DNA from: Eudoraea adriatica DSM 19308
GTDB taxonomy: Bacteria > Bacteroidota > Bacteroidia > Flavobacteriales > Flavobacteriaceae
Length of the DNA: 64,000 nt
Reading direction: 5' to 3'
Assembly (NCBI RefSeq): GCF_000382125.1
Contig: NZ_KB907552.1
Coordinates: forward strand, 119,456 to 183,455
Part shown: in pieces, positions 45,719 through 63,732 of the stretch
Layout: the number at the start of each line of letters is the position of its first letter
How positions within the stretch are numbered: position 1 is the first letter of the stretch
Position numbers and translations under genes: made by a program
Notes under the pieces: generated by a model
The model's database searches: none
Told to the model about the DNA's origin: nothing
Seen by the model: only the letters and a program-made list of their open reading frames with translations

Positions 45719-45874
45719 GTTTAGAAATGATACAGATTTTTTTTGGACATAGAATTAAGAACCGTATTGAATACATTAGAACCTTCTTAATCGATTGATT
45801 TTAATGGTTTACTGATAATATAAATCGTTTCTTTCCTACATTCTTATTTACGACATGAATAAAGACTTTATTAT

Positions 45875-46110
45875 TCAAATCTTCTTAGGAACATTGCTAT
45901 ATAAACCCGGGCTATCTCCTTCTTTAAATGTTCCTTTGCCTATTATCTCATCCTTTTCATTATCCCAAATAACCTCAACAAAGAACAGATCTATGGCGTA
46001 AAGGACATATTTTTAGTGCCTTCAATAACAATATCCAAAAACTTTCCTTTAGAAAATACAGTATCGTACTGCTCATCTTCTGATAGCATTTTGTATTCGT
46101 AAAGAGTCAT
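45875..46110 (-). pseudogene. Frameshifted small ORF, best-preserved copy of a repeated family
   Basis: The minus strand from ATG 46110 reads MTLYEYKMLSEDEQYDTVF, then SKGKFLDIVIEGTK. A shift near 46001-46016 then moves the frame to YVLYAIDLFFVEVIWDNEKD and EIIGKGTFKEGDSPGLYSNV, stopping at 45875. Reconstructed length is about 78 residues. I do not recognise the family. Decayed copies lie at 48445-48534 and 51834-51974. The flanking 45719-45874 holds nothing I can identify. Confidence 0.7.
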
Positions 46111-46188
46111 TGTAGCAATTTAATTATGTTGAGTGCAGTTATAATGCAGAATTAGATTGTTTTAATTATAGTCTTTGTTGTGCTTTCG

Positions 46189-46989
46189 TTATTGTTCTAA
46201 TTCCTGATCTATTGACAATATGACCTGTTCAGCCCTTTTCCTGCTATTAACAAGTGTTTCACAAGTCAAAGAAACCTTATCTAATAAGGTATGTAACCTG
46301 ATTATAATAAGTTTGTTTTCTCTAATAAGTCTAATTGGATCTTCTACATCACTCATCCTTCTAAGATCAATCTGATGTTGATTCTCTAATAAATCTTTAG
46401 TTTTCATTGTTATTTCTAGATTATTATCCCACAATGCCCCGGAAAACCACATTTCTGCATTAAGATAGTATTCGTTAATTATCGATTTTAATTCTGGGTT
46501 ATTCAAAGCAGAAAACAGACCCGAATTGCCAAATTCTATAATGGCTTTATCATTTATAAACGACCCTACTGTGCTCAAATCGATCGCTGAAAAACATGCC
46601 TCAAAATATGCTCGATCCCAACCCTCAGGAATAGGTTTGTTCCACAAAACCCGAGGTTGGTTAGGAAATTCATCATATTGGTAATCATATAGTCTAACGG
46701 TTTCACCGGCCATTTCTAATATATACTTTATGGCATGAAATCTAAACCCTTCCATCCCAAGAACCCTGTCATGTGATTCAATATCAGATTGAATTGCAGT
46801 TTTCAAATTTTTTAATTGCAGATTAACCTGATTTTGAATCTGGCGGTTTTCATTCCAATTATTGATCTGCAAGGCAATTAATATCCCAACAACCACTAAT
46901 ACAACCTCACCAATAGCATATCTGGCGTATTTAAAAAACTGGTTGTCATCAGCGAGTTTTTTACGGATTTTTCTAAAGAAGTTAATCAT
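46189..46989 (-). CDS. DUF6090 family protein (copy a)
   Basis: A 266-residue one-TM protein. The N-terminus is MINFFRKIRKKLADDNQFFK, then a hydrophobic helix ending VVVGILIALQINNWNE (about residues 28-50), then a mostly helical soluble domain of about 215 residues, probably periplasmic. The C-terminal domain (GFRFHAIKYILEMAGE; LLENQHQIDLRRMSDVED) is close to that of copy f at 51984-52796, and the two genes' 5' ends are nearly identical in DNA. DUF6090 is a Bacteroidetes family of unknown function. The stop codon is embedded in a TAACGAAAGCACAACAA 3' motif shared with other genes of the island. Confidence 0.85.
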   Translation of the reverse strand: MINFFRKIRKKLADDNQFFKYARYAIGEVVLVVVGILIALQINNWNENRQIQNQVNLQLKNLKTAIQSDIESHDRVLGMEGFRFHAIKYILEMAGETVRLYDYQYDEFPNQPRVLWNKPIPEGWDRAYFEACFSAIDLSTVGSFINDKAIIEFGNSGLFSALNNPELKSIINEYYLNAEMWFSGALWDNNLEITMKTKDLLENQHQIDLRRMSDVEDPIRLIRENKLIIIRLHTLLDKVSLTCETLVNSRKRAEQVILSIDQELEQ

Positions 46990-47036
46990 GGAAAGGAAGC
47001 AGTTGGTTGTTCTTCCTAAGGTAAGGAATTATTATA
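46990..47036 (-). repeat. Shared leader segment upstream of DUF6090 copy a
   Basis: On the minus strand it contains AATAATTCCTTACCTTAGGA followed by AGAACAACT just before the start codon. Related sequence precedes copy e (51809-51845), copy f (52797-52840) and the cupin gene (48440-48465). It corresponds to the 3' end of the decayed small ORF (reading NNSLP and stop). Confidence 0.65.
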
Positions 47037-47053
47037 AGGAACTTAAAATCAAG

Positions 47054-47091
47054 ACCACCACATTATGCAATATCATGGATGTTTTGGTGGT
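47054..47091 (-). other. Hairpin downstream of DUF6090 copy b
   Basis: A 7-bp stem ACCACCA/TGGTGGT (47054-47060 with 47085-47091) encloses a 24-base loop. It lies about 70 bases past the stop of copy b. The T-run is weak, so terminator function is uncertain. Confidence 0.35.
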
Positions 47092-47160
47092 TGGGGAAGA
47101 TTGCCAGCCTTTCCTTATCTTTCTTCACCCGCCTTAGTTATTTTTTCCATATAGAAATAG

Positions 47161-47934
47161 TCAATCATACGTATTTAATTTTCCAAGTTCCCTATTTATA
47201 TGTGCAAGAACCAATTCTATTCGATCAATCCCCGCAAAATTCAAACCAATTTTCCGCCTTCTAATCTGAAATGTTTCCTGGAGATCAATTTGTAATTCAT
47301 TATCATTTCTAATCTCAGAGATAGATTTTATTTTGAATTTATATTCAGGATATCGGGAATAATTTAATTGATTCCCTACTATTTGATCTGTTAAAATGAA
47401 ATGTTTTTTATAATAAGGATGAAGTGCCATGCTGATATCCCATCTAGGATTCGATTCATCCCATTCTTTTATCCTTGGGAAAGTGAGTTCGTATAGTTCC
47501 GTAATCTCTAATCTAAGTGAGTCATTTGAAATTATATTCATATCAGAGGATTTAAAAGATTCATAACCTGATGAATTTGGGAAAAAATGTCGGTCTTGAC
47601 TCAAAGAACTAAAGTGCAGAAATATTGAATCCTCTAACATATTCTCACCTAATAAGAAGCGTTTGAACTTATTGCCATTTTTTTGACTTTCTAGATGACT
47701 CTCATAGTCGTTTTTGAGATCGATTAAGGTTCTATCCAAATCTGTTCTTATAGTTTTGAGCAACTCAATTTCGACAACTTTACTTTTACGATCCTCATTC
47801 CAATTATTGACCTGCAAGGCTATTAGTATCCCAATAACTACCAATAAGATCTCACCTATAGCATACTTCATGTATTTCAAAGGCTTGTTATCGTCTGCGA
47901 GTTTTTTGCGAATACGTCTAAAGAAATTTATCAT
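47161..47934 (-). CDS. DUF6090 family protein (copy b)
   Basis: A 257-residue protein: MINFFRRIRKKLADDNKPLK, a TM helix ending IGILIALQVNNWNEDRK, then a helical domain with the subgroup motif GYESFKSSDMNIISNDSLRL shared with copies c, e and (more weakly) h. The N-terminus is predicted cytoplasmic and the large domain periplasmic. Function unknown. Its leader contains a second, aborted MINFF start (47975-48031). Confidence 0.85.
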   Translation of the reverse strand: MINFFRRIRKKLADDNKPLKYMKYAIGEILLVVIGILIALQVNNWNEDRKSKVVEIELLKTIRTDLDRTLIDLKNDYESHLESQKNGNKFKRFLLGENMLEDSIFLHFSSLSQDRHFFPNSSGYESFKSSDMNIISNDSLRLEITELYELTFPRIKEWDESNPRWDISMALHPYYKKHFILTDQIVGNQLNYSRYPEYKFKIKSISEIRNDNELQIDLQETFQIRRRKIGLNFAGIDRIELVLAHINRELGKLNTYD

Positions 47935-47974
47935 AGTCTTAGTCTTAATGCCCTCCCGCCGGCTGGCCCATTCA

Positions 47975-48031
47975 CTAAAAACATTCGCTGAATGTTTTTT
48001 TAACGCTCTGTCCTCTAAAGAAGTTGATCAT
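47975..48031 (-). other. Aborted DUF6090 start plus strong hairpin
   Basis: From ATG 48031 on the minus strand the frame reads MINFFRGQSVKKTFSECF and stops; only the first residues match DUF6090. Inside it a perfect 10-bp stem with 3-base loop (47977-47986 with 47990-47999) is flanked by A/T runs, so it can act as terminator of the cupin gene ending at 48045. It looks like a remnant of a recombined gene start. Confidence 0.5.
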
Positions 48032-48044
48032 ATTTTAAAAATAT

Positions 48045-48422
48045 TTACTCGTTTAATTCAATTAGCAAGGAGTGAAATTCTGTATAGCCTGTATTTTCAA
48101 TTGAATGTACGACATCTTTTATCTTAAATTTTTGTCCTTTTTTGAATGAACGTTCCATAACGGTATCATTAACGATATTTATCCTTAATTCGGCATCCTC
48201 AAGAAAATACGCGTACATAGGTGGATGATGATGTATGGGTTCTTTTTCTCCAGGTTTAAGAACATGGTCTACAATCCGAACATTTTCATTCTCATATAAA
48301 ATTGTGTAGTAAGGCTCAGGAAGAGGTGTAAAGGCGGAATCTTTAAATGAATTTTGTAGCAAGTATAAAAGCGCTATTCCTATTACAATTCCCATAGCCA
48401 GGAAAGTAATTTTAGTTTTCAT
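48045..48422 (-). CDS. Membrane-anchored cupin-domain protein
   Basis: A 125-residue protein with an N-terminal membrane helix (ITFLAMGIVIGIALLYLL) and a single cupin barrel. The metal-binding motif is visible as GEKEPIHHHPPMYAYFLED. Small cupins of this kind bind a metal and a small ligand; the role is unknown. The helix lacks a clear cleavage site, so the barrel is probably tethered on the outer face of the inner membrane. It lies among DUF6090 copies. Confidence 0.85.
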   Translation of the reverse strand: MKTKITFLAMGIVIGIALLYLLQNSFKDSAFTPLPEPYYTILYENENVRIVDHVLKPGEKEPIHHHPPMYAYFLEDAELRINIVNDTVMERSFKKGQKFKIKDVVHSIENTGYTEFHSLLIELNE

Positions 48423-48444
48423 AGTTGGTGAAGTTATCTATTTC

Positions 48445-48534
48445 CTAAGGTAAGGAATTATTATCTATGGCATAAAGGACATACTTGGTGTTACTATCAA
48501 TATAAATATCCAGGAACTTGGCTTTGGCAATTGA
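48445..48534 (-). pseudogene. Fragment of the repeated small ORF
   Basis: The minus strand reads IAKAKFLDIYIDSNTKYVLY then AIDNNSLP and a stop at 48445, matching the middle of the family seen at 45875-46110 (KFLDIVIEGTK, YVLYAID). The 5' part is missing; the membrane-protein gene ends just upstream at 48539. Confidence 0.6.
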
Positions 48535-48538
48535 AAGG

Positions 48539-49168
48539 TCAGAATATCAAATTGAACGTAATTTGATGGATTATCCATAGTGAGATGATCAACAAATATG
48601 GTTTATAATTCCTGCCATTTTTTCTATCGAGAAATATTAACCCGATCAGGATAAGATATATCACCATGCAAAAAACATTCTGATTTACTTTATCTGACAG
48701 CCCTAACCAGAAAATTCCAATTCTGCCTAATGTAGGGTCTAGAAAAACCAGTGCTGCACCGATCATATACCTCATATGTTTTGGAGTGTTGAGCTTATAA
48801 TAAATTGCCAGTGAATAAAACAACACTAACATAATAACATCCGATAAAGGAAAAAATAAAATGGCCGGGGCATCTGAATTGGCTATCCTTACCATTCCCG
48901 GAATAAAAGATAAAATAAGCAGGGGGAAAACCCAGTATGAAATTTTCCCCACCAGACGGTGCAGTTTATATTTCTTTTTTCTTATTAACAGGGGTTGGGC
49001 TATAAGCATCAAAATCCATATAGAAGCAATTGCGGCATGAATATGAATATAGGTATTAGTCTCTTCAAATGTTGGAAACTGATTAAAATAGGTTTTGTAA
49101 AAACCGAAAAACGTAAACGGAATCAATAAAAGCAAAACGTAACCTAAATTTTTATATGCTTTTTCCAT
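48539..49168 (-). CDS. Multi-pass membrane protein, DUF2306-like
   Basis: A 209-residue protein with about six to seven membrane helices. Histidines in YIHIHAAIASIWILMLIAQP and in YKLHRLVGKISYW are placed like those of DUF2306-type and related heme-associated membrane proteins. Assignment to that family is tentative. It has its own leader within the attC-like site at 49189-49257. Confidence 0.65.
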   Translation of the reverse strand: MEKAYKNLGYVLLLLIPFTFFGFYKTYFNQFPTFEETNTYIHIHAAIASIWILMLIAQPLLIRKKKYKLHRLVGKISYWVFPLLILSFIPGMVRIANSDAPAILFFPLSDVIMLVLFYSLAIYYKLNTPKHMRYMIGAALVFLDPTLGRIGIFWLGLSDKVNQNVFCMVIYLILIGLIFLDRKNGRNYKPYLLIISLWIIHQITFNLIF

Positions 49169-49188
49169 TATTTTAAGTTTTGTATCAT

Positions 49189-49257
49189 AATAACCGCTAA
49201 CAGTCTCTTATATAGATCCTTTTAATGGTTTATATATATTGTTAGCCTTTCGTTATT
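49189..49257. repeat. attC-like imperfect palindrome A
   Basis: A 69-bp element between two minus-strand genes. Nested inverted repeats: AATAAC (49189-49194) with GTTATT (49252-49257); GCTAACA (49196-49202) with TGTTAGC (49240-49246); TATATA (49209-49214) with TATATA (49231-49236), around a 16-base centre. The layout (outer AAC/GTT boxes, spacer, inner boxes, loop) resembles integron attC sites, though the boxes do not fit the GTTRRRY core exactly. Confidence 0.5.
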
Positions 49258-49288
49258 TTTAAATTTCTTATTTATCTCTTTTATACAA

Positions 49289-50026
49289 TCAATCAGATTT
49301 TTTTAATTCTTGCCTCACCATGTGCAAAATTCGCTGGTTTTCTTCTCTGTGATCGGTAATCAGGTCTAAAAAGTACATACGTTGACCTTCAGTTTTATTA
49401 ATAAGGGCAATAAAATAATAGTTTTGCAGTATTTTGTCTGGTTCAAAAGGAATATAAAACACATCCTCATCGTTCTTATAAATCTTCTGAACAAAATGTT
49501 CGTCAATAAACTTCTCCCTATCTGCTTTGTCTACATCACCCCATTCCAATTCTACATGAAAACGTGGTTGTGTTTCTTCAAAAAATAACATCAATTCTTT
49601 TTTCAGACTGTCATTTTGAACAATTTCAAAACCTGTATTTTTAATGGATTCATATCCCATATCGGCGAGTTTAAATCCGGAGGTATTCATTAGGGCACTA
49701 TGGAAAATCACGGAAAGGGAATCGTGGTATGGCATTTTTTGATCAAGGACATTAATTATATGCTGCCCTGCGCCACGGAAATAGTTGATAAAGTGAAACC
49801 GATTTTCCATCAAAGCCTCATTCTGCTCTAAATTATCGACTAAATTCTCTAGCAGTTTTTTCTCCAATACCTTGTCTTTTCTCACTTCATTCCAATTATT
49901 AATCTGCAAGGCAATCAAAATCCCAATAACCACCAATAAAATCTCCCCAATAGCATACCTCATGTATTTTAAGGGCTTGTTATCGTCTGCGAGTTTTCTG
50001 CGTATTCCCCTAAAAAAATTAATCAT
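49289..50026 (-). CDS. DUF6090 family protein (copy c)
   Basis: I start at 50026 (MINFFRGIRRKLADDNKPLK), seven codons inside the longest frame, to match its paralogs; 245 residues. The TM helix ends IGILIALQINNWNEVRK. The soluble domain has GYESIKNTGFEIVQNDSLKK and FEETQPRF, the subgroup pattern shared with b and e. The DNA of its first 140 bases closely resembles that of copy b. An overlapping upstream ORF (50019-50156) precedes it. Confidence 0.85.
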   Translation of the reverse strand: MINFFRGIRRKLADDNKPLKYMRYAIGEILLVVIGILIALQINNWNEVRKDKVLEKKLLENLVDNLEQNEALMENRFHFINYFRGAGQHIINVLDQKMPYHDSLSVIFHSALMNTSGFKLADMGYESIKNTGFEIVQNDSLKKELMLFFEETQPRFHVELEWGDVDKADREKFIDEHFVQKIYKNDEDVFYIPFEPDKILQNYYFIALINKTEGQRMYFLDLITDHREENQRILHMVRQELKKSD

Positions 50027-50156
50027 AGTTTCTAATAATATTTTCAAGACGTCCGCAAGCGGCTATCTCAACCATCCCGATAACTATCGGGAGTCCACTG
50101 GACATTTGATTTTGCATTTGCAAAATTCTGTTTCGATAATGGAAGAAGTTGATCAT
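50019..50156 (-). other. 45-codon upstream ORF beginning MINFF, overlapping copy c
   Basis: From ATG 50156 the frame reads MINFFHYRNRILQMQNQMSS and continues through the palindrome (as LPIVIG, 50076-50091) and the shared 21-bp leader block (50053-50073) to a TAA overlapping the start of copy c. Only the first five residues match DUF6090. It is either a regulatory leader peptide or, more likely, a remnant of a recombined gene start. Confidence 0.4.
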
Positions 50157-50160
50157 TGGT

Positions 50161-50186
50161 TATTGTTAGCCTTTCGTTATTTTTAA
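50161..50186 (-). repeat. Half of an attC-like site at the end of DUF6090 copy d
   Basis: These 26 bases are identical to 49237-49262 in site A and include AATAACGAAAGGCTAACAA on the minus strand, overlapping the stop codon of copy d. The partner half is absent; the aborted MINFF ORF follows directly. Confidence 0.55.
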
Positions 50187-50926
50187 TCTGCTCCATTTAA
50201 TTGATCATCAATGCTGGCGATCAGGTTTTCAGCGTCAGCTATTTTGCGAGACATATCACCAATGTATGCTCTGCGATACCTGAATGATTTTTCCAATGCA
50301 TTTCTGACCCCTCTTTTATTAAAGATTTCGTTAAAGTCGAAATCAACCTTATTGGCTTTTGGATTTATTTCATTGTAATCGACATTTGGATGAATGTGAA
50401 GTATTTCAAGTTCTTGCAATGTTTCCCCCAGTTTTGTAATAGCAGCATTAATAGATTGGGTTTCTTGAAGGTAGGTTAAGAATTTGCGATTCAATTCTTT
50501 ATCAATTCTATCAATCGTACCCTGCGCAATTACTAAATCATTTCGATTGATGTTTTTATTAATCGGAGTAAGTATTTGAAAATCAGTCAGAGCCGAAACG
50601 ATTTCCTGATGTTCATCAGGAGTAAGACTTTGAACACCACCATCAAACAACTTTATGGTGTTTTTTATGTTATCATTAATTCTCTGATAATGAGATTTTC
50701 TTTCCCTAAGTGATGATATATCTACTGACAATTCAACTTTCAAATTGTTCAGAAACTCAATATCCTGGATGTGAATTTTTCTAAGTTCATTCCAATTATT
50801 AATCTGCAATGCAATCAAAATTCCAATGACTACCAACACAATTTCACCAATAGCGTATTTAAGATACTTTCCAGTTTTACCTTCTGAAAGTAGATGTTGA
50901 CGGATTTTTTTAAAGAATTTTATCAT
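50183..50926 (-). CDS. DUF6090 family protein (copy d)
   Basis: A 247-residue protein starting MIKFFKKIRQHLLSEGKTGK, TM helix ending IGILIALQINNWNELRK, then a helical domain unlike that of the other copies (SLTPDEHQEIVSALTDF; VRNALEKSFRYRRAYIGDMS), with coiled-coil character at both ends. It represents a third C-terminal type within the array. Function unknown. Confidence 0.83.
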   Translation of the reverse strand: MIKFFKKIRQHLLSEGKTGKYLKYAIGEIVLVVIGILIALQINNWNELRKIHIQDIEFLNNLKVELSVDISSLRERKSHYQRINDNIKNTIKLFDGGVQSLTPDEHQEIVSALTDFQILTPINKNINRNDLVIAQGTIDRIDKELNRKFLTYLQETQSINAAITKLGETLQELEILHIHPNVDYNEINPKANKVDFDFNEIFNKRGVRNALEKSFRYRRAYIGDMSRKIADAENLIASIDDQLNGAD

Positions 50927-51088
50927 TGGTTATAGTTTCTATTCCGAAGCCTTTCGGCCTTCGGAGCCAGGTTACTTGCGCCTCCGATAATGCTTCAGCC
51001 GCACGCGGACGGCCAAGCAGGCCGGCGCAGGATTATTGAAGCACAACGGATAACTTTGGTCTTCATAGTTTTTGCTGGTGTTTCAATT
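50927..51088 (-). other. GC-rich leader between DUF6090 copies d and e
   Basis: Bases 50941-51040 are strikingly GC-rich against the AT-rich surroundings and contain several short self-complementary runs (for example CGAAGCCTTTCGGCCTTCG). The outer part pairs as an imperfect palindrome near the end of copy e (ATTGAAACAC with GTGCTTCAAT on the minus strand). No gene is apparent. Confidence 0.5.
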
Positions 51089-51808
51089 TTACTGCAACGC
51101 ATCCTTAATAAGTTGGAGGACTCTTTCGGTTTCCTTCTTACACAACATCATCACCTTAAAAACTCTATTTCTTCCACCCTCTATCTCCCGGACAATAGTC
51201 ATAAATTTTTTATCTTCTATCAGAGAACCATAGTCCAGAGGAATTAAGCCTGGATCAGAGGGTCCAATGTAAAAATAATCTTGCATCCACATGGGATTAC
51301 TCCCCCAGGTGGCATTGACCACTTCTGTCTCCTGGACATAGCTTGGATAACTTGTTTCAAATAGCGATAAGATTTCATTCTTAAGCACTTTTGAAGTAAG
51401 AATTTCAAAACCAATATTTTTAAGAGATTCGTACCCATTTGTGTTTAAATTTAACAGGTAAGAACCTGACCTGTTAAATTGGCTAAAATGATACTTCAAT
51501 GTATCTGTGTACGGCTTTCTTTCCGCAATAATCTCTATCATAGTCCCGGTGCTCTTGTTTATTTCATTCATCTCAGCGGCAGCGATATCAATAAGAGCAA
51601 GGTTTCTTTCTAAATTGTTCTCTAACTCCAGTAAAATGCTTTTTTCGATAATTCTCTCCTTCCTCCACTCATTCCAATTATTAATCTGCAACGCAATCAA
51701 TATCCCAATCACAACCAATATAATCTCGCCAATTGCATATCTGGCATATTTGAAGAACTGGTTATCGTCGGCCAGTTTTCTACGGATTTTTCTAAATAAA
51801 CCAATCAT
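51089..51808 (-). CDS. DUF6090 family protein (copy e)
   Basis: A 239-residue protein: MIGLFRKIRRKLADDNQFFK, TM helix ending IGILIALQINNWNEWRK, helical domain with NGYESLKNIGFEILTSKVLK and LFETSYPSY, the b/c subgroup pattern. The 5' end in DNA is closest to copies a and f, while the 3' domain groups with b and c, so the gene looks mosaic. The leader shares the small-ORF tail segment. Confidence 0.85.
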   Translation of the reverse strand: MIGLFRKIRRKLADDNQFFKYARYAIGEIILVVIGILIALQINNWNEWRKERIIEKSILLELENNLERNLALIDIAAAEMNEINKSTGTMIEIIAERKPYTDTLKYHFSQFNRSGSYLLNLNTNGYESLKNIGFEILTSKVLKNEILSLFETSYPSYVQETEVVNATWGSNPMWMQDYFYIGPSDPGLIPLDYGSLIEDKKFMTIVREIEGGRNRVFKVMMLCKKETERVLQLIKDALQ

Positions 51809-51833
51809 CAGAAGTAAATGTTAGTTGTTCTTC

Positions 51834-51974
51834 CTAGGGTAAGGAATTATTAAATATAGCATAAAGGATATAATTGGTGTTGCCATCAATATGAATATCT
51901 AGGAACTTGCCTTTTGAAAATACAGTATCCTAATGGTCATCTTCAAAAAGTATTTTGTATTCGTACAGAGTCAT
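51834..51974 (-). pseudogene. Decayed small ORF with in-frame stop, between copies e and f
   Basis: ATG at 51974 reads MTLYEYKILFEDDH, then TAG, then DTVFSKGKFLDIHIDGNTNY and ILYAIFNNSLP to a stop at 51834. Both halves are in one frame, so a single nonsense change broke it. It aligns along its length with the copy at 45875-46110 up to YAI, after which the two differ (NNSLP-stop versus LFFVEVIW). Confidence 0.7.
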
Positions 51975-51983
51975 TGTCCTAAG

Positions 51984-52796
51984 TTAATTATTTAATTGAT
52001 TCAACTCGGTCTTAATGTCTTCCAATACCTGCAAGGCCATTTGGCTACTGTTCAAAAATGTCTGGCAGCTCCAAGATATGTTATCTAGCAAAATGTGGAG
52101 CTTTGAAGTTATTACAGTATCATTTTTAAATAATTCTATCATGCCTTTCACATCTCTTACCCTTCTGCTATCTATTTGGTGTTGATCGAGCAAGAAATCC
52201 CTTATTTGCAGAGATATATCAAGTTTGTATTCCCAGGCCCGACCAACATACCTAGTATCAGTATAGATGTAATATTCATTGATTTTCTTTTTGAGTTCTA
52301 CATTTTTCAATGAAGAGAACAATCCAGTAGAATTAAACTCACTAATAGCTGATTTATTTATAATTGATCCAGTTGGGCCATTATCTAAGATAGATAAACA
52401 AGTTGTAATATATTCCTCATCATATTCTTCGGGAATTGGTTTGTCCCACATAAAAGACCATTGATTCTTTGGAAATTTATGGTAGTCATAACTGTAAATG
52501 AGAATTTCTTCTTCAGCCAGTCCTAATAAGTATTTTACAGCATGAAATCGAAATCCTTCTTGGGACAAAAGATTTTCATAGCTTTTTACATCACTTTCGA
52601 TCGCATCAATAAGGTTAATCAATTGAGCTTGTACATTCTCTTGGGTCTTGATTTTTTCATTCCAATTATTGATCTGCAAGGCAATCAATATCCCAACAAC
52701 CACTAATACAATCTCACCAATAGCATATCTGGCGTATTTAAAAAACTGGTTATCATCTGCGAGTTTCTTGCGGATTTTACGGAAGAAGCCAATCAT
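51984..52796 (-). CDS. DUF6090 family protein (copy f)
   Basis: A 270-residue protein: MIGFFRKIRKKLADDNQFFK, TM helix ending VVGILIALQINNWNEKIK, then the same C-terminal type as copy a (EGFRFHAVKYLLGLAEEE; DQHQIDSRRVRDVKGM). The two genes are clear duplicates, separated by four other genes and a pseudogene. The leader carries the shared segment ending in AAGAACAACTAAC. Confidence 0.85.
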   Translation of the reverse strand: MIGFFRKIRKKLADDNQFFKYARYAIGEIVLVVVGILIALQINNWNEKIKTQENVQAQLINLIDAIESDVKSYENLLSQEGFRFHAVKYLLGLAEEEILIYSYDYHKFPKNQWSFMWDKPIPEEYDEEYITTCLSILDNGPTGSIINKSAISEFNSTGLFSSLKNVELKKKINEYYIYTDTRYVGRAWEYKLDISLQIRDFLLDQHQIDSRRVRDVKGMIELFKNDTVITSKLHILLDNISWSCQTFLNSSQMALQVLEDIKTELNQLNN

Positions 52797-52861
52797 GAGA
52801 AGTAAAAGTTAGTTGTTCTTCATAAGGTAAGGAATTATAGCCATTATTGTGGAGCATATTT

Positions 52862-55294: not shown

Positions 55295-55334
55295 TAAAAT
55301 TATGATTTAGTTTCGTTATGCTCTACTAGTTATT

Positions 55335-55384
55335 TCCAACGGTCTTGATAAAAAGTTTTTTAATGTAATTTATCTTTTGTTAGT
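55335..55384. repeat. attC-like imperfect palindrome C
   Basis: Between CehA and the esterase. CCAAC (55336-55340), spacer GGTCTT, GATAAA (55347-55352), 16-base centre, TTTATC (55369-55374), then GTTAGT (55379-55384). The inner pair is perfect; the outer pair matches only at AAC/GTT. It overlaps the esterase stop codon. Spacer and box order match sites A and B. Confidence 0.45.
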
Positions 55385-56284
55385 AGTCGTTAATGGATTG
55401 TTGAAATTATTACTGATGAAAATTAATGCATCATCCAAGGCAGTGCGGAAGTAAATTCTATTATGCTTACCATCCCTTACCCTATACTCATGGGCAATTT
55501 CCAAATCACGTAGTTTGATATGAAATAAGGAATTCCCTTTATACAAGTGGTCATCGTCACCAATATCAATATAGTACTTGACTTGACTGATTCTTTTAAT
55601 TGGCAAATTGCTAATGAGATAAAGGATACTATTTGAATTCCAAAAGTCATTTATCCTTACTGTGTTCCTATTAATTTCTCCAAAGGCACTTTTATAATTT
55701 TTCAAAAAATCCTCATATGGCATCTCTTCAATCTGTTCGTCAGTTCTAATGGCAGCTGCCAGGACAGCACAGGCATTAAATAATTCCGGATGGTGCAGAC
55801 TATATAGCAAGGCGCCAAAGCCACCCATTGATTGTCCGGCTATTCCTCTAAAAGCTTTTTCCCCTCCACATTTAAATCTTTTTTCAACAGCAGGCACAAG
55901 TTCTTCAATAAAGTAATCTTCAAACTGATAATCACCATTTATGTTATTCAGGTAAAATGTCATTTCTGCATCGGGAATAACAACTACCATCGGGTTAACC
56001 TTACCACTCGCGATTAAACTATCCATTTTACCCTGAAAACCTGCATCCACCAACCTTTGATGTAAGTCAGGTCGCGTTCCGCTTCCATGTAAAAGATAAA
56101 GGACCGGATAAACTTCCTGAGAGGAATCATAGTCTGGTGGAAGATAAATATTGAACAGTTTGTCCCTGGAGAGAATTTCACTCTTAATTGATACGTTTGT
56201 CAAGATTTTGCTAGCCTGGGCAAACGAATGAATGCCAGTAATACACCCTAATAAGAGAAACAGAAATGTTTTTAGGATCATCAT
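55370..56284 (-). CDS. Secreted esterase (esterase D / PHB-depolymerase-like alpha/beta hydrolase)
   Basis: A 304-residue protein with signal peptide (LKTFLFLLLGCITGIHSFAQ). Hydrolase motifs are YPVLYLLHGSGTRPD, the nucleophile in GIAGQSMGGFGALLYS, Asp in DIGDDDHLYKGN, and His in RVRDGKHNRIYF. This fits the esterase D/antigen-85-like group that cleaves carbohydrate-linked or aromatic acyl esters. The last codons lie inside attC-like site C. Confidence 0.88.
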   Translation of the reverse strand: MMILKTFLFLLLGCITGIHSFAQASKILTNVSIKSEILSRDKLFNIYLPPDYDSSQEVYPVLYLLHGSGTRPDLHQRLVDAGFQGKMDSLIASGKVNPMVVVIPDAEMTFYLNNINGDYQFEDYFIEELVPAVEKRFKCGGEKAFRGIAGQSMGGFGALLYSLHHPELFNACAVLAAAIRTDEQIEEMPYEDFLKNYKSAFGEINRNTVRINDFWNSNSILYLISNLPIKRISQVKYYIDIGDDDHLYKGNSLFHIKLRDLEIAHEYRVRDGKHNRIYFRTALDDALIFISNNFNNPLTTTNKR

Positions 56285-56305
56285 CTTACTTTAATTGATA
56301 AGACT

Positions 56306-56356
56306 ACTAACGACCTTAATAAATGATCGTTCTTATGCCGTTTATTTATTGTTAGT
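56306..56356. repeat. attC-like imperfect palindrome B
   Basis: ACTAAC (56306-56311), spacer GACCTT, AATAAAT (56318-56324), 19-base centre, ATTTATT (56344-56350), GTTAGT (56351-56356). Both pairs are perfect inverted repeats in the same nested order as site A. It overlaps the stop codon of the gene at 56342. Confidence 0.5.
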
Positions 56357-57403
56357 ATTCGTTTTATAATCTACCTCAGTAAATAATATTTTTCTAATTG
56401 TTTCAAATCCCAATGAATCTCGTAAAATTCCATGTCCGGCACCTTCAACAATTTGCATGTGGACATACGGAGACCCTACAGACGCCAGTTTTTCATAATA
56501 AGTAAGCCCTTGATTTAAAGCACCTACCTGATCATTGCCCCCATAAATAAGGTAAACACTGGTATTTGGATAATAGTACCTCCCTCCATGAGAAATACTG
56601 CTATTTTTATAAACCTCATAATAGGTAGTATCACGCAGTTCACAAGGCCCTTTTGCATCTAAATTAAAACCTAAACTTTGATCGATTACTGTTCTGGCTC
56701 TCTTAGAATAATGGAGCTGACTATTTAGAGGATCGCTATCAAAACATCCAATATCTAACCTCCCCATCCAAAAACCAGCAAAAATAATAGCCTTGTCTGT
56801 GATACTATCGATTCCATAAAAACTAAGCATGTAGGCTATCTGTGCAGCTCCTCCTGAACTGCCAAAAAGAATAAACGGCTTATCCCTTTCTACTAAATTA
56901 TCAAAGATATACTGAGTAATTGAAGCAGGATGAACAGCCAATTTACGAAAGCCTTCTCTTTTCTCCTTACTACCTTTGAACCATCCTTCGTTCCATTTTA
57001 TTTGAATTACACGATATCCTTTTTCTAATGATTCTTCTATTATGGTATTACCTGATTTTTTTGCACCATAGAAGAAATTACCGTTTCCACCTGAGTACAT
57101 TACAACAGTTCCAATTATATCTCCTTCAGGCTCATCTATCCTTAAAACTCCGGTTTTGGTTTCGAATACTTGAGAGGAAGATGAAGTAAATTTATAGCAC
57201 TTACTTGTCTCACATGTATGTGATTTAGGATTAAAATTGACCACACCCAGATCCAATGTTCCAGACGCGTCACCATTTTTGTCGGTTTTACATGACGCTA
57301 AAAAGGATATTGCAATAAGAATTCCCGAAGCATAAATCAGATATTTACCGAATTTGTTTTCTGGCAATAATTGTTGTCTAATATGTCTGAAAAACTTGAT
57401 CAT
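56342..57403 (-). CDS. Lipoprotein alpha/beta hydrolase with a DUF6090-like N-terminus
   Basis: A 353-residue protein. Residues 1-25 (MIKFFRHIRQQLLPENKFGK, then YLIYA) copy the opening of DUF6090 proteins. Then comes a hydrophobic stretch ending in a canonical lipobox (GILIAISFLASC, Cys about 37). The rest is an alpha/beta hydrolase with YSGGNGNFFYG, nucleophile elbow FILFGSSGGAAQIAYML, and a C-terminal His in IVEGAGHGILRDSLG. It looks like an in-frame join of a DUF6090 5' end to the signal peptide of a hydrolase lipoprotein. No other Met precedes the lipobox, so the joined start is probably the one in use. Substrate unknown. Confidence 0.8.
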   Translation of the reverse strand: MIKFFRHIRQQLLPENKFGKYLIYASGILIAISFLASCKTDKNGDASGTLDLGVVNFNPKSHTCETSKCYKFTSSSSQVFETKTGVLRIDEPEGDIIGTVVMYSGGNGNFFYGAKKSGNTIIEESLEKGYRVIQIKWNEGWFKGSKEKREGFRKLAVHPASITQYIFDNLVERDKPFILFGSSGGAAQIAYMLSFYGIDSITDKAIIFAGFWMGRLDIGCFDSDPLNSQLHYSKRARTVIDQSLGFNLDAKGPCELRDTTYYEVYKNSSISHGGRYYYPNTSVYLIYGGNDQVGALNQGLTYYEKLASVGSPYVHMQIVEGAGHGILRDSLGFETIRKILFTEVDYKTNTNNK

Positions 57404-57773
57404 TTATTTTAATTTTCTGGCCTGTGCACCGACACCGCCATGGCCCAGCCACTATGGCAGAGTAAGGTGGCTCCTCACTACCTAAGGCCTGCAAGACCTT
57501 TCCTTTCTATTCGGACCACTAAAGAATTTTATCATTGTTACAGACTGGTCAAAGTTGTTGCCAAGTTGTACTATAAGGACTAATATAACTTAAAATCCCG
57601 CAATATTTCGGGTTATGTGGACCTCTTTGGCTTTTTATCCTCCATTTATTGGTTTTGATGTCAATTGCCTGCTATTTTAGAAGAAAAGATTTTTTAAACG
57701 CTTATATTAAGACATAAACGCCTTTAAAAAGGGAGCTTATTCTGTAACTTGGCAATAACTTAAATCACTACAA
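57404..57773. other. 370-base intergenic region at the strand switch of the island
   Basis: The first 100 bases are GC-rich (around GCCATGGCCCAGCCACTATG), forming the leader of the hydrolase gene, similar in flavour to 50941-51040. A small palindrome CCCGCAATATTTCGGG lies near 57597. Divergent promoters for the minus-strand array and the plus-strand genes must lie here, but I see no consensus promoter. Confidence 0.4.
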
Positions 57774-58232
57774 ATGAAAAGACTTAATCCTATAATTTTA
57801 ATGATATTTTGCGCAACGATATCATTTGGCCAGAACACATTAGAAACCGACAAATCATATATAAAAAATTTGATTATTGGGTCTTTTGACGAAATTTGGT
57901 CTGAATTGAACTCTAAAAACATTGATAAGTACTACACAAAAGATTTTCTGCTTTTGGAAAATGGAGAGGTGTGGAATAACGACTCCATTTCAGATTATCT
58001 GGACAAAGCCGTACTTAAAAACCCAATTTCCAATCGACTGAACACCATTGAATTTATTGAAGTTAAAGTCTCAGAAGGAATGGCCTGGGTTGCATACAAA
58101 AACCAGGCTACTTTTTCTCTGGACAACGAAATAATCAGAAAAATTCATTGGCTGGAAAGTGCGACCGCAATTTTAACGGAAAATGGATGGCGACTGGAAA
58201 TGCTCCATTCAACCCGGACGGAAATCAAATAA
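57774..58232 (+). CDS. Secreted NTF2/SnoaL-like protein (DUF4440 type)
   Basis: A 152-residue protein with signal peptide (RLNPIILMIFCATISFGQ) and an NTF2-like cone fold: IKNLIIGSFDEIWSELNSKN, KYYTKDFLLLENGEVW, and a closing strand pair MAWVAYKNQATFSL and GWRLEMLHSTRTE. Such domains bind small molecules or act as isomerase scaffolds. No catalytic assignment is possible. Confidence 0.8.
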   Translation: MKRLNPIILMIFCATISFGQNTLETDKSYIKNLIIGSFDEIWSELNSKNIDKYYTKDFLLLENGEVWNNDSISDYLDKAVLKNPISNRLNTIEFIEVKVSEGMAWVAYKNQATFSLDNEIIRKIHWLESATAILTENGWRLEMLHSTRTEIK

Positions 58233-58392
58233 TTACCACTCCCGGAACTGAATAAAAATAATTACCTAAATTTAGACGTGCCTAAAAGTAGTTACAAGTT
58301 TACCGCGTCTGATTTTCCTATGAAAAAAACCTCCCACCTGGACCCGGAACTATTCTTATTCAAGACCCTTGTGTAGATATTAAAACGAACTA

Positions 58393-58884
58393 ATGAAACG
58401 AAATAATCCTTTATTCTTACTCTTTATGTCTTGCATTAGTCTTACGATATCCGCTCAGGAAAATATGGAGGATACAAATATTTTTCTTAGGATATATAAT
58501 CCACAGGGCATAAAATTTAGCAAAGGAAAGCTCGTTTCTATCCAGGATAATGCAATTTTATTAATGAGACACAAAAAAAACATTTCAATTGAGGTATCTG
58601 AAATTGGAAGGATAAAAACAAAGCGCGCTCTGGGGCATAATATTGGAATTGGTGCACTGGCTGGCACTTCGGCAGGAATTATCTATGGTTTTGCGCAAGG
58701 GGCAGATGGAGGTGCTTTTGGCACAAACTCAGGCGGAGATAACGCATTGGTATTTGGAACACTTGGATTACTGGCGGGCTCCTTTGCCGGTGGAATTAGT
58801 GGAATAGGAAAGAAATCGAGATCCTTTGAAATTAATAAAGATCCTGAGCAACTGCGCAAATTCAGGGAAATAGTGCATGAATAA
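58393..58884 (+). CDS. Hypothetical protein with Gly-rich membrane segment
   Basis: A 163-residue protein with signal peptide (LFLLFMSCISLTISAQ). Next comes a short beta-like domain (GKLVSIQDNAILLMRHKKN). Two Gly/Ala-rich hydrophobic stretches follow (IGIGALAGTSAGIIYGFAQG; LVFGTLGLLAGSFAGGISG), then a short charged end. I do not recognise the family; the glycine-zipper-like segments suggest membrane association or oligomerisation. The 160 bases before it and 271 bases after it show no further gene. Confidence 0.65.
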   Translation: MKRNNPLFLLFMSCISLTISAQENMEDTNIFLRIYNPQGIKFSKGKLVSIQDNAILLMRHKKNISIEVSEIGRIKTKRALGHNIGIGALAGTSAGIIYGFAQGADGGAFGTNSGGDNALVFGTLGLLAGSFAGGISGIGKKSRSFEINKDPEQLRKFREIVHE

Positions 58885-59155
58885 TTCTGCCAGGCATTAT
58901 TCCCCTTTCCAAATGTCATATATTTAATCGGTCTTATTTCGCTGGTTAAAATATCTATGACCACCAAACCCAATGCCGAAACAGGTAGTCAAACCGAAAT
59001 CAAAACCTGGTCGTGCTTGCTTAATATGAAAATGACAAGAATGTGCACATTAATTTGCAAACGCTATTCTATATTGAAAATTAGTACCTTCAAACGAATA
59101 ATTGATGTTCATACGAGACCGTTGTACATTATTTAAACCAAACAATTACCAATAG

Positions 59156-60175
59156 ATGCTATATAGACTTATTGGCATATTTTACTTTCTAACAGCTTTT
59201 CTGGTGTTAGGCTGTAAAAGCCATGAAAAAAAAGAGGTAGGAAAAGAACCAAAAAATCCAGATACCTACGTTTTGGTAGAAAACTGGCTAAAAATGCCAG
59301 AAGACCATGTTTTAGGAAACCCTACCGGACTTGGAACGGACTCTGAAAATAATATTGTGGTCTTTCACAGAGCAAGCAGAGTCTGGCAAGAACCAATGCC
59401 AGAAGATAAAATTCAGGAGAACACTATTCTGGTTATTGATAAACAAACAGGTGAAATATTAAAAAGTTGGGGGGCCGATTTATTTATAATGCCACATGGC
59501 CTGGAAGTTGACAAAGACAATAATGTCTGGATTACCGATGTTGCCCTGCATCAGGTTTTTAAGTTTAGTGCAGATGGCAAGCTACTTTTAAAGTTAGGTG
59601 AAGCCCAAATTGCCGGAAATGATGCGGAACATTTCAATCTTCCCACGGATGTCGCCGTTTCAGACGATGGTTCTTTTTACGTAAGTGATGGCTACGGCAA
59701 CAGCAGAGTAGTTAAATACTCTAAAGACGGAACATACTTATTTGAATGGGGCAAATTCGGAAATAAGCAGGGGGAATTTAACATTCCACACGGAATTGAT
59801 TTAGATAGAGATGATAATGTTTATGTTGCAGATCGTGAGAACAACAGAATTCAAAAATTTGATAGTAAAGGAAATTTCATTGCCGTTTGGCAAAATAAAA
59901 TAACCGAACAACTATATTCTGTTGCTATTGACAATCAAAACGACAACCTGTTTGGAATAGATTATATGACTGTAAACGATACTATTGTTAAAGGTTCTGA
60001 TATTTTTCGATTTGATTTGGATTTAAACCTGCAAATACAATTTGGCAGAACCGCTTTTTATGATGGCCCGATAGCAAGGTATCACGACATTGCAATCGAT
60101 GATGAAGGGAGTATTTACGTCGTTGATATTTTAGAAAATAAAGTTCAAAAATTTCAAATGAAAAAAGCTTATTGA
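59156..60175 (+). CDS. NHL-repeat lipoprotein, peptidyl-hydroxyglycine lyase-like
   Basis: A 339-residue lipoprotein (lipobox LVLGC, Cys 20) built of NHL propeller blades: PHGLEVDKDNNVWITDVALH, LPTDVAVSDDGSFYVSDGYG, IPHGIDLDRDDNVYVADREN, and HDIAIDDEGSIYVVDILENK. The repeated H-x-(L/I)-x-x-D pattern is that of peptidyl-alpha-hydroxyglycine alpha-amidating lyase relatives; bacterial members are mostly of unknown function. Its 3' flank (AAAAAACGAACAAACAAGAA) resembles the 3' motif of the minus-strand cassettes. Confidence 0.83.
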   Translation: MLYRLIGIFYFLTAFLVLGCKSHEKKEVGKEPKNPDTYVLVENWLKMPEDHVLGNPTGLGTDSENNIVVFHRASRVWQEPMPEDKIQENTILVIDKQTGEILKSWGADLFIMPHGLEVDKDNNVWITDVALHQVFKFSADGKLLLKLGEAQIAGNDAEHFNLPTDVAVSDDGSFYVSDGYGNSRVVKYSKDGTYLFEWGKFGNKQGEFNIPHGIDLDRDDNVYVADRENNRIQKFDSKGNFIAVWQNKITEQLYSVAIDNQNDNLFGIDYMTVNDTIVKGSDIFRFDLDLNLQIQFGRTAFYDGPIARYHDIAIDDEGSIYVVDILENKVQKFQMKKAY

Positions 60176-60247
60176 AATAAAAAAACGAACAAACAAGAAC
60201 GTATATTAGTCATAAGTTAATACCATTTGTCCAAATACCGGACCATT

Positions 60248-60268
60248 GGTTGAGATAGCCGCTTGCGG
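60248..60268 (+). repeat. 21-bp leader block shared with DUF6090 copy c
   Basis: These 21 bases (containing TGAGATAGCCGCTTGCGG) are the exact reverse complement of 50053-50073. In both places they lie 20-50 bases upstream of a DUF6090 gene and in the same orientation relative to it. Confidence 0.7.
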
Positions 60269-60293
60269 TCGTAACCAAACTACCACTTAGATA

Positions 60294-61052
60294 ATGATCA
60301 ATTTTTTTAGGCGAATTCGGAAGAAACTACTAGCCGAAAATAGGTTTACCAAATACTTACTATATGGAATTGGAGAAATCGTTTTGGTTGTCATTGGAAT
60401 CTTAATAGCCCTGCAAATAAACAATTGGAATGAAGATAAAAAAACGGCTAAGCAAGAAATCAAAATTTTAAACGAACTAAAGAATGACCTGGAAACCAAT
60501 TTAAACGAAATTATAGAAACCTATAACACAACCAGACACAGAGAATTATCCGCTGTCCTTATTCTAGATTATTTTGATAAGGCAAAACCAGTGGATGATA
60601 GCTTAAAACAAGCATTCGAAAATATTAATATGGATGGTCTGTTCAACATTTCAAACACGTCCTATAAATTTATTGAAAGCCAGGGTATTAATAGCTTGAG
60701 CAATGATAGCTTACGCATTAGAGTCACAGAAATGTATGAACGTCATTTAAAAAATATCCTCACTCGTGAAAATATAAATCTGGAAATTATTAATGAAGAA
60801 TTAATCCCACTTATGAATGATCGCTTTTTATCATCTCCAACAATTGATAAAACAGTTTCATTTGCTGTAGAAGCTATAAATACACCTAAAAATATAGAAT
60901 CCTTAAGGGAGGACGCCATATTTAAAAATGTAATTGTTAGATTACAGAACTGGTTATTAGTGCGTTTAAAATGGCAACAAGTTGCTCGTACAAATTTAGA
61001 GCAACTTATTGCAGACGTGGAAAAAGAGATTGATAGATTAAAATTGAAATAA
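60294..61052 (+). CDS. DUF6090 family protein (copy h)
   Basis: A 252-residue protein, the only copy on the plus strand. It starts MINFFRRIRKKLLAENRFTK, has a TM helix ending VIGILIALQINNWNEDK, and a helical soluble domain with SQGINSLSNDSLRIRVTEMY, related to the b/c/e motif. The C-terminus is a charged helix (RTNLEQLIADVEKEIDRLK). The stop is 3 bases before the amidohydrolase start, so the two are co-transcribed. Confidence 0.85.
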   Translation: MINFFRRIRKKLLAENRFTKYLLYGIGEIVLVVIGILIALQINNWNEDKKTAKQEIKILNELKNDLETNLNEIIETYNTTRHRELSAVLILDYFDKAKPVDDSLKQAFENINMDGLFNISNTSYKFIESQGINSLSNDSLRIRVTEMYERHLKNILTRENINLEIINEELIPLMNDRFLSSPTIDKTVSFAVEAINTPKNIESLREDAIFKNVIVRLQNWLLVRLKWQQVARTNLEQLIADVEKEIDRLKLK

Positions 61053-61055
61053 TTT

Positions 61056-62477: not shown

Positions 62478-62489
62478 GTTTAAGGAAAG

Positions 62490-62557
62490 ATATCACCGGA
62501 GTTTGTCAAAAATTAGTTCTTGAATACATAGAAAAAGCAGAAGCATTAGACACTTGA
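62490..62557 (+). pseudogene. Decayed 3' end of a paralog of the glycosyltransferase-like gene
   Basis: This stretch reads KLVLEYIEKAEALDT and stop, matching the C-terminus KLVLRYTAKVEALDI of the intact gene at 62862-63698. The following 60 bases also resemble the intact downstream DNA, including an A-run and a CTGGAGATCAAG-like piece of the dapB end. Coordinates are accurate to a few bases. Confidence 0.6.
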
Positions 62558-62861
62558 TGAATCCTTCTTAGATAATCAAAAAACCCTTTCCGGGTTAACA
62601 ATTACTGACCTGGAGATCAAGGGTAAAATTATATCCTATTTGCTAACCTATGATCATGGGCATCTAATTCTTAAGAAACCCAATGCACAAATAATTCACA
62701 GGACCGACCATTTTACAGTAAAGAGAAAAATTTGAGGTAGAATTATTTTAAGCATAATCTTTTACATTTACTTACTGTACTTTTGAAAAGGAAAAACTGC
62801 AATGGTTGCACCTAAAATTGTGTGTTTATCCTAACAATAAATTAATATAATCTATTCAGAT
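62558..62861. other. Degenerate region upstream of the glycosyltransferase-like gene
   Basis: A stretch of about 60 open codons (ending LKKPNAQIIHRTDHFTVKRK near 62737) has no start codon and no family I recognise. It may be a residue of the duplicated segment noted just before. A minus-strand terminator-like hairpin (AACCC/GGGTT) lies near 62585-62600. The rest is AT-rich without visible features. Confidence 0.35.
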
Positions 62862-63698: not shown

Positions 63699-63732
63699 TC
63701 CTTCCCCCTGGAATAATAAAAAAGCTCCCCGG

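What the first reader, a model, noticed from the sequence alone, without database searches (positions are those of the whole stretch)
46189..61052. Array of seven DUF6090 paralogs plus one chimera, with constant N-termini and variable C-terminal domains
Copies a (46189), b (47161), c (49289), d (50183), e (51089), f (51984) and h (60294) share a nearly invariant first 50 residues (MINFFRKIRKKLADDN-like, then a TM helix ending GILIALQINNWNE). Behind it are at least three different soluble domains: type 1 in a and f, type 2 in b, c, e and weakly h, type 3 in d. Copy e has a type 2 domain but a 5' DNA end closest to a and f. A constant membrane module with exchangeable outer domains suggests diversification by recombination, as in surface sensing, self-recognition or inter-bacterial competition. 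The family has no known function.
Basis: partly seen in the sequence, partly recalled or inferred. Interest (0 to 1): 0.8.

Follow-up and report, generated by a model that had tools for sequence, protein, structure and literature searches.

The report
Constant membrane anchor, swappable outer domains
A marine bacterium carries more than fifty copies of a gene for a small membrane protein of unknown function, and comparison with related species shows that the outer halves of these proteins are repeatedly exchanged, even between species, behind a more conserved membrane anchor, which makes this look like a bacterial repertoire of interchangeable recognition domains.

Summary
The seven window copies are among 56 DUF6090 (PF19578) matches in this genome (genus inferred: Eudoraea); ten genomes of the genus hold 3 to 56.

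Recombination was tested and holds. Across genomes, 32 non-redundant gene pairs share a C-terminal domain (at least 70% aa). In 22 of 32 the 5' module is significantly less similar than the C-domain, in 0 the reverse, in 10 no difference. In the extreme pair 583 of 585 C-domain bases are identical behind a 72% identical 5' end. Most change points fall in the last ~70 bp of the module. Within the genome, N- and C-part similarities are uncorrelated. The 18-kb island is absent from the same site in two relatives.

Corrections: most N-terminal constancy is selection on the protein (silent sites near saturation), and the 'three different domains' are mostly one hyperdivergent helical family; d is weakly joined.

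How it diversifies is well supported; what it does is not. I favour a periplasmic immunity or exclusion repertoire (about 0.35), with a sensor array as main rival.

The parts
46189..46989 (-). copy a, DUF6090, type 1 outer domain
   Evidence: PF19578 E 8.7e-9; AF2 model mean pLDDT 85.1; C-domain 95.3% identical in DNA to a G009 gene whose 5' part is 81% identical
46990..47024 (-). leader of a, holding TTACCTTAGGAAGAACAACCAAC at 47002-47024; similar leaders at 51820-51842 (e) and 52808-52830 (f)
   Evidence: 24 places in the genome with up to 3 mismatches, 0 for the pattern read backwards; 22 of 24 lie in front of DUF6090 copies (assigned by coordinates)
47161..47934 (-). copy b, DUF6090, type 2 outer domain
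   Evidence: PF19578 E 3.9e-15; preceded by a duplicated start
47935..48031 (-). duplicated start and hairpin-forming insert in front of b (upstream ORF MINFFRGQSVKKTFSECF*)
   Evidence: these 97 bp have 7 matches in the genome, itself included, all at DUF6090 gene starts
49289..50026 (-). copy c, DUF6090, type 2 outer domain
   Evidence: PF19578 E 5e-7; AF2 model mean pLDDT 89.3
50027..50156 (-). duplicated start and insert in front of c
50183..50926 (-). copy d, DUF6090, type 3 outer domain
   Evidence: PF19578 E 1.2e-10; C-domain 87.7% and 5' part 73% identical to a G009 gene at L021:5760
51089..51808 (-). copy e, DUF6090, type 2 outer domain
   Evidence: PF19578 E 2.8e-9; 5' part less similar than C-domain against G009 (L030) and against L050
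51984..52796 (-). copy f, DUF6090, type 1 outer domain
   Evidence: PF19578 E 9.9e-7; 5' part 130 of 141 identical to a, C part 393 of 669; C part 634 of 669 identical to own C5_113737
56342..57403 (-). chimera: first ~25 residues of a DUF6090 module joined to a lipoprotein-type hydrolase-like body
   Evidence: module profile matches positions 1-30 only; DNA alignment; no PF19578 match
57404..57535 (-). duplicated start and insert in front of the chimera
60294..61052 (+). copy h, DUF6090, on the other strand
   Evidence: PF19578 E 3.6e-16
45739..63751 (.). island present here, absent between the same flanks in G008 and G009
   Evidence: in both relatives sequence matching up to 45738 is followed, 229 or 135 bp later, by sequence matching from 63752; G009 has a relative of the 278-aa gene (62862-63698) on the other side of the PagL-like gene

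Best explanation
This is a multi-copy family of single-pass membrane proteins. A short charged tail and one membrane helix (residues 1-47), often with a family leader sequence, form a conserved 5' module. Behind it sits a fast-diverging helical domain of about 200 residues, predicted to lie outside the cytoplasm. Shown here: C-domains and 5' modules have separate histories; C-domains occur in other species, some almost unchanged, behind different modules; most estimated switches from one history to the other lie in the last ~70 bp of the module. Inferred: the conserved module DNA is the homology where incoming or sister genes recombine (ordinary homologous recombination rather than a dedicated recombinase), so that new outer domains come to stand behind a resident promoter and anchor. 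Inferred, about 0.35: the outer domains are a repertoire of specific binders that neutralise or exclude incoming agents in the periplasm (immunity or exclusion proteins against competitors or phages), each gene working alone. My confidence is about 0.85 for the diversification mechanism and 0.35 for the role; the figure below is for the statement as a whole.
For: Exchange: 22 of 32 non-redundant cross-genome pairs have a 5' part less similar than the C-domain (p<0.01 each, uncorrected), 0 the reverse, in 17 of 25 C-domain lineages. Own C3_505253 against L045: C-domain 583 of 585, 5' part 72 of 100, Fisher 3.7e-23. In nine own-G009 pairs C-domain dS is 0.025-0.806, below both flanking control genes (0.574, 0.686) in 6 of 9, while module dS of the same pairs is 0.82 or more, once not calculable. 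Within the genome: Mantel rho 0.050; C2_667448 and C2_696948 match 28-30 of 30 per block from -90 to +120, then 9-22 of 30. A unit bounded by modules on both sides: L021_4915/L021_5760. Anchor: AF2 helix 18-82 in c. Topology: mean net charge of the tail +5.5, of the 25 residues after the module -0.6. Repertoire: 3-56 matches per genome in the genus; no Pfam family matched more than 2 of 87 neighbouring ORFs, so no partner gene was recognised.
Against: No function was observed. Ten of 32 cross-genome pairs show no difference between the parts, and of the six pairs with named loci tested only 2 were discordant. Several change points near -70 may mark the border between the variable tail and the conserved membrane codons rather than a crossover. 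Topology is only moderately supported: K+R are 6.9 in the tail of ~26 residues but also 3.5 in the 15 residues after the helix. C-domain dN/dS is raised (median 0.24 in nine own-G009 pairs; two flanking genes 0.11 and 0.14) without clear positive selection; the one value near 1 rests on 3 silent changes. Changes are not concentrated in the middle or in the long helices. No toxin was recognised among the 25 displayed of 118 Pfam families of the neighbours. The single queries used found no relative in viral, phage or plasmid collections, so nothing links the family directly to phages or competitors. Foldseek gave no informative relative of c.
Confidence: 0.55

Rival explanations
1. Sensor array: each outer domain binds a different ligand and signals through the constant helix and tail to one shared cytoplasmic partner.
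For: The tail and helix are more conserved than a plain anchor should need (R9, Y21, V32 and N43 in 0.98-1.0 of 50 copies); the domain is a helical bundle continuous with the membrane helix, a shape common in receptors (recalled).
Against: The tail has only about 25 residues and no recognised signalling domain; no shared partner gene was recognised nearby; ligand binding is untested.
Confidence: 0.3
2. No recombination: the N-terminus is constant only because selection keeps its protein sequence, while C-domains drift.
For: Pooled four-fold site identity of modules is 0.32, close to the 0.30 of C-domains; same-codon fraction 0.47-0.50 against 0.41 expected. This does explain most of the constancy.
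Against: It cannot produce C-domains 94-99.7% identical in DNA behind 5' parts 65-81% identical, nor about 200 bp of near-identical DNA that ends at the domain border.
Confidence: 0.05
3. Neutral or selfish gene family: the copies spread and recombine because they carry good homology and a promoter, with no selected function of the repertoire.
For: Large copy-number differences within a genus; modules also stand in front of unrelated genes (window chimera, C2_664037); clusters scattered over the genome.
Against: Of 56 matches only one has a stop inside; C-domain dN/dS is 0.09-0.40 in 8 of 9 own-G009 pairs.
Confidence: 0.15
4. Polymorphic toxin or contact-dependent effector family with variable C-terminal toxin domains.
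For: Constant N-part and exchanged C-part, as in those systems (PMC3482391, seen as a search listing with the start of its abstract).
Against: No toxin family match in seven of seven copies against Pfam or four of seven against NCBIfam; C-domains are mostly one helical family; no recurring partner gene was recognised.
Confidence: 0.04
5. Programmed variation (silent cassettes or a site-specific recombinase).
For: Modular structure; two of 87 neighbours match Phage_integrase and one integrase-like ORF lies near the G009 pair (recognised by eye).
Against: Among the fetched clusters no C-domain stretch lies outside the listed genes except the tail of one broken copy; change points scatter from -72 to +66 nt.
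Confidence: 0.03

Closest known systems
DUF6090, Pfam PF19578
   Same: All seven copies match above the curated cut-off.
   Different: Pfam lists it as a family of unknown function. I found no description of the modular exchange: DUF6090 and PF19578 occur in 0 papers of the held library.
[quoted passage not shown]
   Same: Bacteroidota; arrays of orphan genes; rapid sequence change.
   Different: Those are orphan immunity genes related to T6SS immunity genes, in recombinase-associated clusters; here the copies share one membrane module and no link to a T6SS was seen.
T6SS effector-immunity gene arrays of Vibrio cholerae (PMC5361080, outline with abstract and start of introduction read)
   Same: Homologous recombination, horizontal acquisition, accumulation of arrays.
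   Different: There effector-immunity pairs are added at T6SS clusters; here single genes with exchanged outer domains lie in many places of the chromosome.
Polymorphic toxin systems (PMC3482391, listing and start of abstract only)
   Same: C-terminal part exchanged by recombination.
   Different: The C-part here is mostly one helical family without a recognised toxin, and no partner gene was recognised.

Membership tests
DUF6090 (PF19578) | profile score above the curated cut-off | tested here: met
   7 of 7 window copies, 29.2-60.0 bits against 23.5; the chimera does not match
Polymorphic toxin systems | C-terminal toxin domain | tested here: not met
   no toxin family in Pfam (7 of 7 copies) or NCBIfam (4 of 7 copies given); an unknown toxin fold is not excluded
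Polymorphic toxin systems | adjacent immunity gene | tested here: inconclusive
   no Pfam family matched more than 2 of 87 neighbouring ORFs (87 of the 91 found were given; ORFs under 100 aa and families without a Pfam model not covered)
rAID / orphan immunity arrays | homology to immunity proteins of known effectors | tested here: inconclusive
   no immunity family among Pfam or NCBIfam matches of the copies; unknown immunity families cannot be excluded
rAID / orphan immunity arrays | associated tyrosine recombinase | tested here: inconclusive
   2 of 87 neighbours match Phage_integrase; none among the 17 main ORFs of the window island scanned
Silent-cassette antigenic variation | promoterless cassettes lacking the N-part | tested here: not met
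   2 hits outside listed genes, both at the tail of one broken copy (only the fetched clusters were searched)
Known anti-phage defence systems | match to a PADLOC model | tested here: not met
   8 proteins scanned, one weak partial match (E 0.0057), none better
Phage superinfection-exclusion proteins | block of phage entry | not testable with these tools
   needs infection assays; copy c has no match in 50,697 phage records and alignment A3 none in IMG/VR

The most novel reading that the evidence does not exclude
A bacterial repertoire system built like a constant/variable receptor family. A promoter plus a 47-residue membrane module is the conserved segment and recombination anchor; one old helical fold, diverged beyond BLAST recognition, supplies variable outer domains that are traded between species and collected by the dozen per genome, giving each strain its own set of periplasmic recognition or immunity proteins. 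The same segment also captures unrelated genes.
Probability: 0.35. Interest if true: 0.85.

Novelty: new variant of a known kind. Interest (0 to 1): 0.66.

Why it matters
Domain exchange behind a constant N-part is known for toxins and some surface antigens (recalled). Here it shapes a widespread uncharacterised family: 91 of 149 sampled genomes of the bacterial family and 38 of 198 of the phylum have a match, several of them at the scoring limit of the search. C-domains that are nearly identical between species but stand behind different modules mean that the outer domain itself is what is passed on. That gives a handle on function: find what these domains bind. If they are immunity or exclusion proteins, the family would be a large hidden defence repertoire.

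Tried and rejected
Silent cassettes: searched in the fetched own-genome clusters, none except at the tail of a broken copy. Phage, plasmid or viral carriage: no match (with alignment A3; with copy c only). Defence-system models: one weak partial match, E 0.0057. PHROGs: best E 0.0069, for h against an Rz-like spanin, over 19-82, the membrane helix and coiled part; not followed. Solved-structure sequence search: best E 0.11. Fold searches of the c model: best E 0.027 (PDB) and 0.025 (viral), generic helical matches; the a model was not fold-searched. The idea that the inserts at duplicated starts are a general mobile repeat: the one tested (97 bp) occurs only at DUF6090 starts (7 of 7); the other types were not searched. 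The idea that intergenic repeats are universal cassette ends: a loose 3' tag follows only 16 of 59 own and 9 of 51 G009 genes. Variation concentrated in one part of the domain: not seen. A first profile-comparison script hit its time limit and a dN/dS script failed; both were redone in changed form.

Rows dropped: of 59 own genes, 55 entered C-domain work (left out: broken C1_552830, chimera, hybrid C2_664037, remote C8_2711). C3_503722 is cut short by the edge of my fetched stretch. Of 51 G009 genes found (55 Pfam matches), 41 were used. Of 39 cross-genome pairs, 6 were self-pairs (L045 is taken to be genome G006, from identical genes) and 1 a duplicate, leaving the 32. Pairs are not independent (25 lineages) and p-values are uncorrected.

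Changed on re-check, odds left as they were: dN/dS range corrected to 0.09-0.40, residues cited for conservation changed, topology evidence told more fully, leader coordinates corrected.
Full report
1. What is there. Seven window ORFs match PF19578/DUF6090 above its cut-off and share residues 1-47: a charged tail, one membrane helix and NNWNE. An eighth gene (56342-57403) has only about 25 such residues before a lipoprotein-type signal and a hydrolase-like body. The window belongs to a 3.90-Mb genome with 56 PF19578 matches, against none in 14 control genomes. I extracted 59 module-bearing genes; the 55 used for C-domain work form 14 clusters or singletons. The genus is inferred to be Eudoraea: a contig of same-genus genome G009 has the same length, 663146, as the contig of the named Eudoraea locus L047, and one gene on each is identical.

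2. Is the constancy recombination or selection? Both. Over the 55 genes the pooled four-fold site identity of modules is 0.32, close to the 0.30 of C-domains, and the same-codon fraction is 0.47-0.50 against 0.41 expected. So on average the modules are old, and selection on the protein keeps them alike. But some pairs are nearly identical in 5' DNA and unrelated behind it: C2_667448 and C2_696948 match in 28-30 of 30 per block from -90 to +120, then in 9-22 of 30. Copies a and f match in 130 of 141 in the 5' part and 393 of 669 behind (Fisher 2.3e-16), while f's C part is 634 of 669 identical to C5_113737, whose 5' part is less alike (123 of 141, p 0.0023). Overall, N-DNA identity and C-domain similarity are uncorrelated (Mantel rho 0.050; 390 of 2000 permutations reach it) and the nearest N and C neighbours coincide for 3 of 55. 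Both parts are somewhat more alike within clusters than between (N: 2 of 2000 permutations reach the difference; C: 31 of 2000).

3. Between genomes. Against G009, nine gene pairs share a C-domain at 73-94% aa; in 7 of 9 the 5' module is significantly less similar, in 2 of 9 not. Of six own genes compared with named loci, 2 were discordant and 4 not. With G001, G006, G007, G008, G009 and the named loci together, 32 non-redundant pairs share a C-domain at 70% or more: 22 discordant at p<0.01, 0 reversed, 10 not different; 17 of 25 lineages have a discordant pair, and window copies a, d, e and f are among them. The most recent case is own C3_505253 against L045: 583 of 585 C-domain bases identical, 72 of 100 in the 5' part (p 3.7e-23). 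Estimated change points run from -72 to +66 nt relative to the module end, median -43; 20 of 22 lie between -72 and 0 (counted). Those near -70 may reflect the border between variable tail and conserved membrane codons rather than a crossover. The scatter fits homologous recombination better than a site-specific enzyme (inference). In G009 the gene after L021_4915 has a 5' module closest to that of own C2_668267 but the C-domain of window copy d: this exchanged unit is bounded by modules on both sides.

4. Timing. For the nine own-G009 pairs C-domain dS is 0.025, 0.093, 0.265, 0.358, 0.404, 0.505, 0.598, 0.666 and 0.806; two flanking genes give 0.574 and 0.686. So 6 of 9 C-domains are closer than both flanks, as expected for transfer after the species split; the other three are not. 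Module dS for the same pairs is 0.82 or more, in one case not calculable. C-domain dN/dS is 0.09-0.40 in 8 of 9 and 1.05 in one (3 silent, 13 replacement changes); the flanks have 0.11 and 0.14. This is faster protein change, not proof of positive selection.

5. The island. In G008 and G009 sequence matching up to window 45738 is followed, after 229 and 135 bp, by sequence matching from 63752. G009 has two DUF6090 genes and the relative of the 278-aa gene on the other side of the PagL-like gene. In G006 a different stretch of about 7 kb with other genes lies between the same flanks. Two tRNA genes lie just left of the PagL-like gene in the window.

6. The outer domains. Profile comparison joins 52 of 55 C-domains by single linkage at probability 95 or more and at least 80 columns, 53 at 90 (d joins), 54 at 80; 1079 of 1485 pairs reach 95. 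Controls with shuffled (0 of 120) or reversed (0 of 150) columns never reach 50. So the 'types' are mostly one hyperdivergent family, with C2_680138 outside and d and C5_159931 weakly attached. AF2 models of c (mean pLDDT 89.3, pTM 0.76) and a (85.1, 0.74) agree in outline: helix 2-14, a very long helix from 18 through the membrane to 82 or 93, shorter elements in the middle, and a long C-terminal helix (203-244, 226-265). Foldseek found no informative relative for c. Net charge is +5.5 for the tail and -0.6 for the 25 residues after the module (means over 55), which by the positive-inside rule (recalled) puts the domain outside the cytoplasm; but K+R are also 3.5 in the first 15 residues after it, against 6.9 in the tail, so this is moderate evidence. 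Thirty of 55 C-domains have no cysteine.

7. The 5' module as a unit. The leader TTACCTTAGGAAGAACAACCAAC (up to 3 mismatches) occurs 24 times in the genome, 0 for the pattern read backwards. By coordinates, 22 precede DUF6090 genes, one the hybrid C2_664037 (a quinoprotein-like body, recalled, not scanned) and one a cyclase-like gene (recalled, not scanned). TACCTTAG resembles the Bacteroidetes -7 element (recalled). Twelve of 59 genes have a duplicated start, the two starts 97-132 bp apart with hairpin-forming sequence between; the one searched has 7 matches in the genome, all at DUF6090 starts.

8. Spread. Matches per genome in the genus: 56, 12, 10, 21, 21, 12, 33, 13, 3, 55, some assemblies being incomplete. 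Sampled: 91 of 149 genomes of the family and 38 of 198 of the phylum, several at the scoring limit. No relative was found in IMG/VR contigs, plasmids or phages by the single queries used.

9. What it does. No Pfam family matches more than 2 of 87 neighbouring ORFs (25 of 118 families displayed). Single genes with a conserved anchor, an exchanged outer domain, horizontal spread and strongly varying number fit a repertoire of specific binders. I favour immunity or exclusion in the periplasm (0.35), by analogy with orphan immunity arrays (PMC12247911, PMC5361080, abstracts read), over a sensor array (0.30) and a family without selected function (0.15). None of these is shown.

10. Literature. Held papers naming DUF6090 or PF19578: 0. 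Searches for constant-N/variable-C families in Bacteroidetes or flavobacteria, or for the motif NNWNE, listed nothing on this family, judged from listings.

Noticed in passing
window 47935-48031, 50027-50156, 57404-57535: Duplicated gene starts: the first codons of the module, then hairpin-forming sequence, then the real start 97-132 bp on; the short upstream ORFs could be regulatory leader peptides.
   Followed up: partly
L004:16268, L005:9638, L005:10722, L002:6360, L015:4159: Five own-genome copies carry an in-frame insertion of about ten residues (PPAGSRRADR-like; a variant in L015) at the same place in the tail; similar ones occur in G009.
   Followed up: partly
L004:12038-14242: A 734-aa quinoprotein-like gene (recalled) with a decayed DUF6090 tail and the family leader; G009 has a close relative with the same fusion.
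   Followed up: partly
L054 (G000:C8:26053-26075): The DUF6090 leader stands in front of a cyclase-like gene (recalled), away from the DUF6090 clusters.
   Followed up: partly
window 45861-46188 and 3' of several copies: Relics reading like MTLYEYK.L.EDD follow several DUF6090 genes; possibly decayed copies of another dispersed gene.
   Followed up: no
window 46188, 51047; L013, L016: Intergenic sequences with CGAAAGCACAAC and GTTGTGCTTC, inversely repeated, resembling ends of cassettes.
   Followed up: partly
L040:12672-19365: In G006 the same site holds other genes (an amidohydrolase among them), so the place beside the PagL-like gene looks like a hot spot.
   Followed up: no
L013:5301-6055: One broken DUF6090 copy (C1_552830): the module is open and C-domain sequence remains behind a stop.
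   Followed up: no
window 60294-61052 (copy h): Weak match of residues 19-82 to an Rz-like spanin family of phages (E 0.0069), probably only the membrane helix and coiled part.
   Followed up: no
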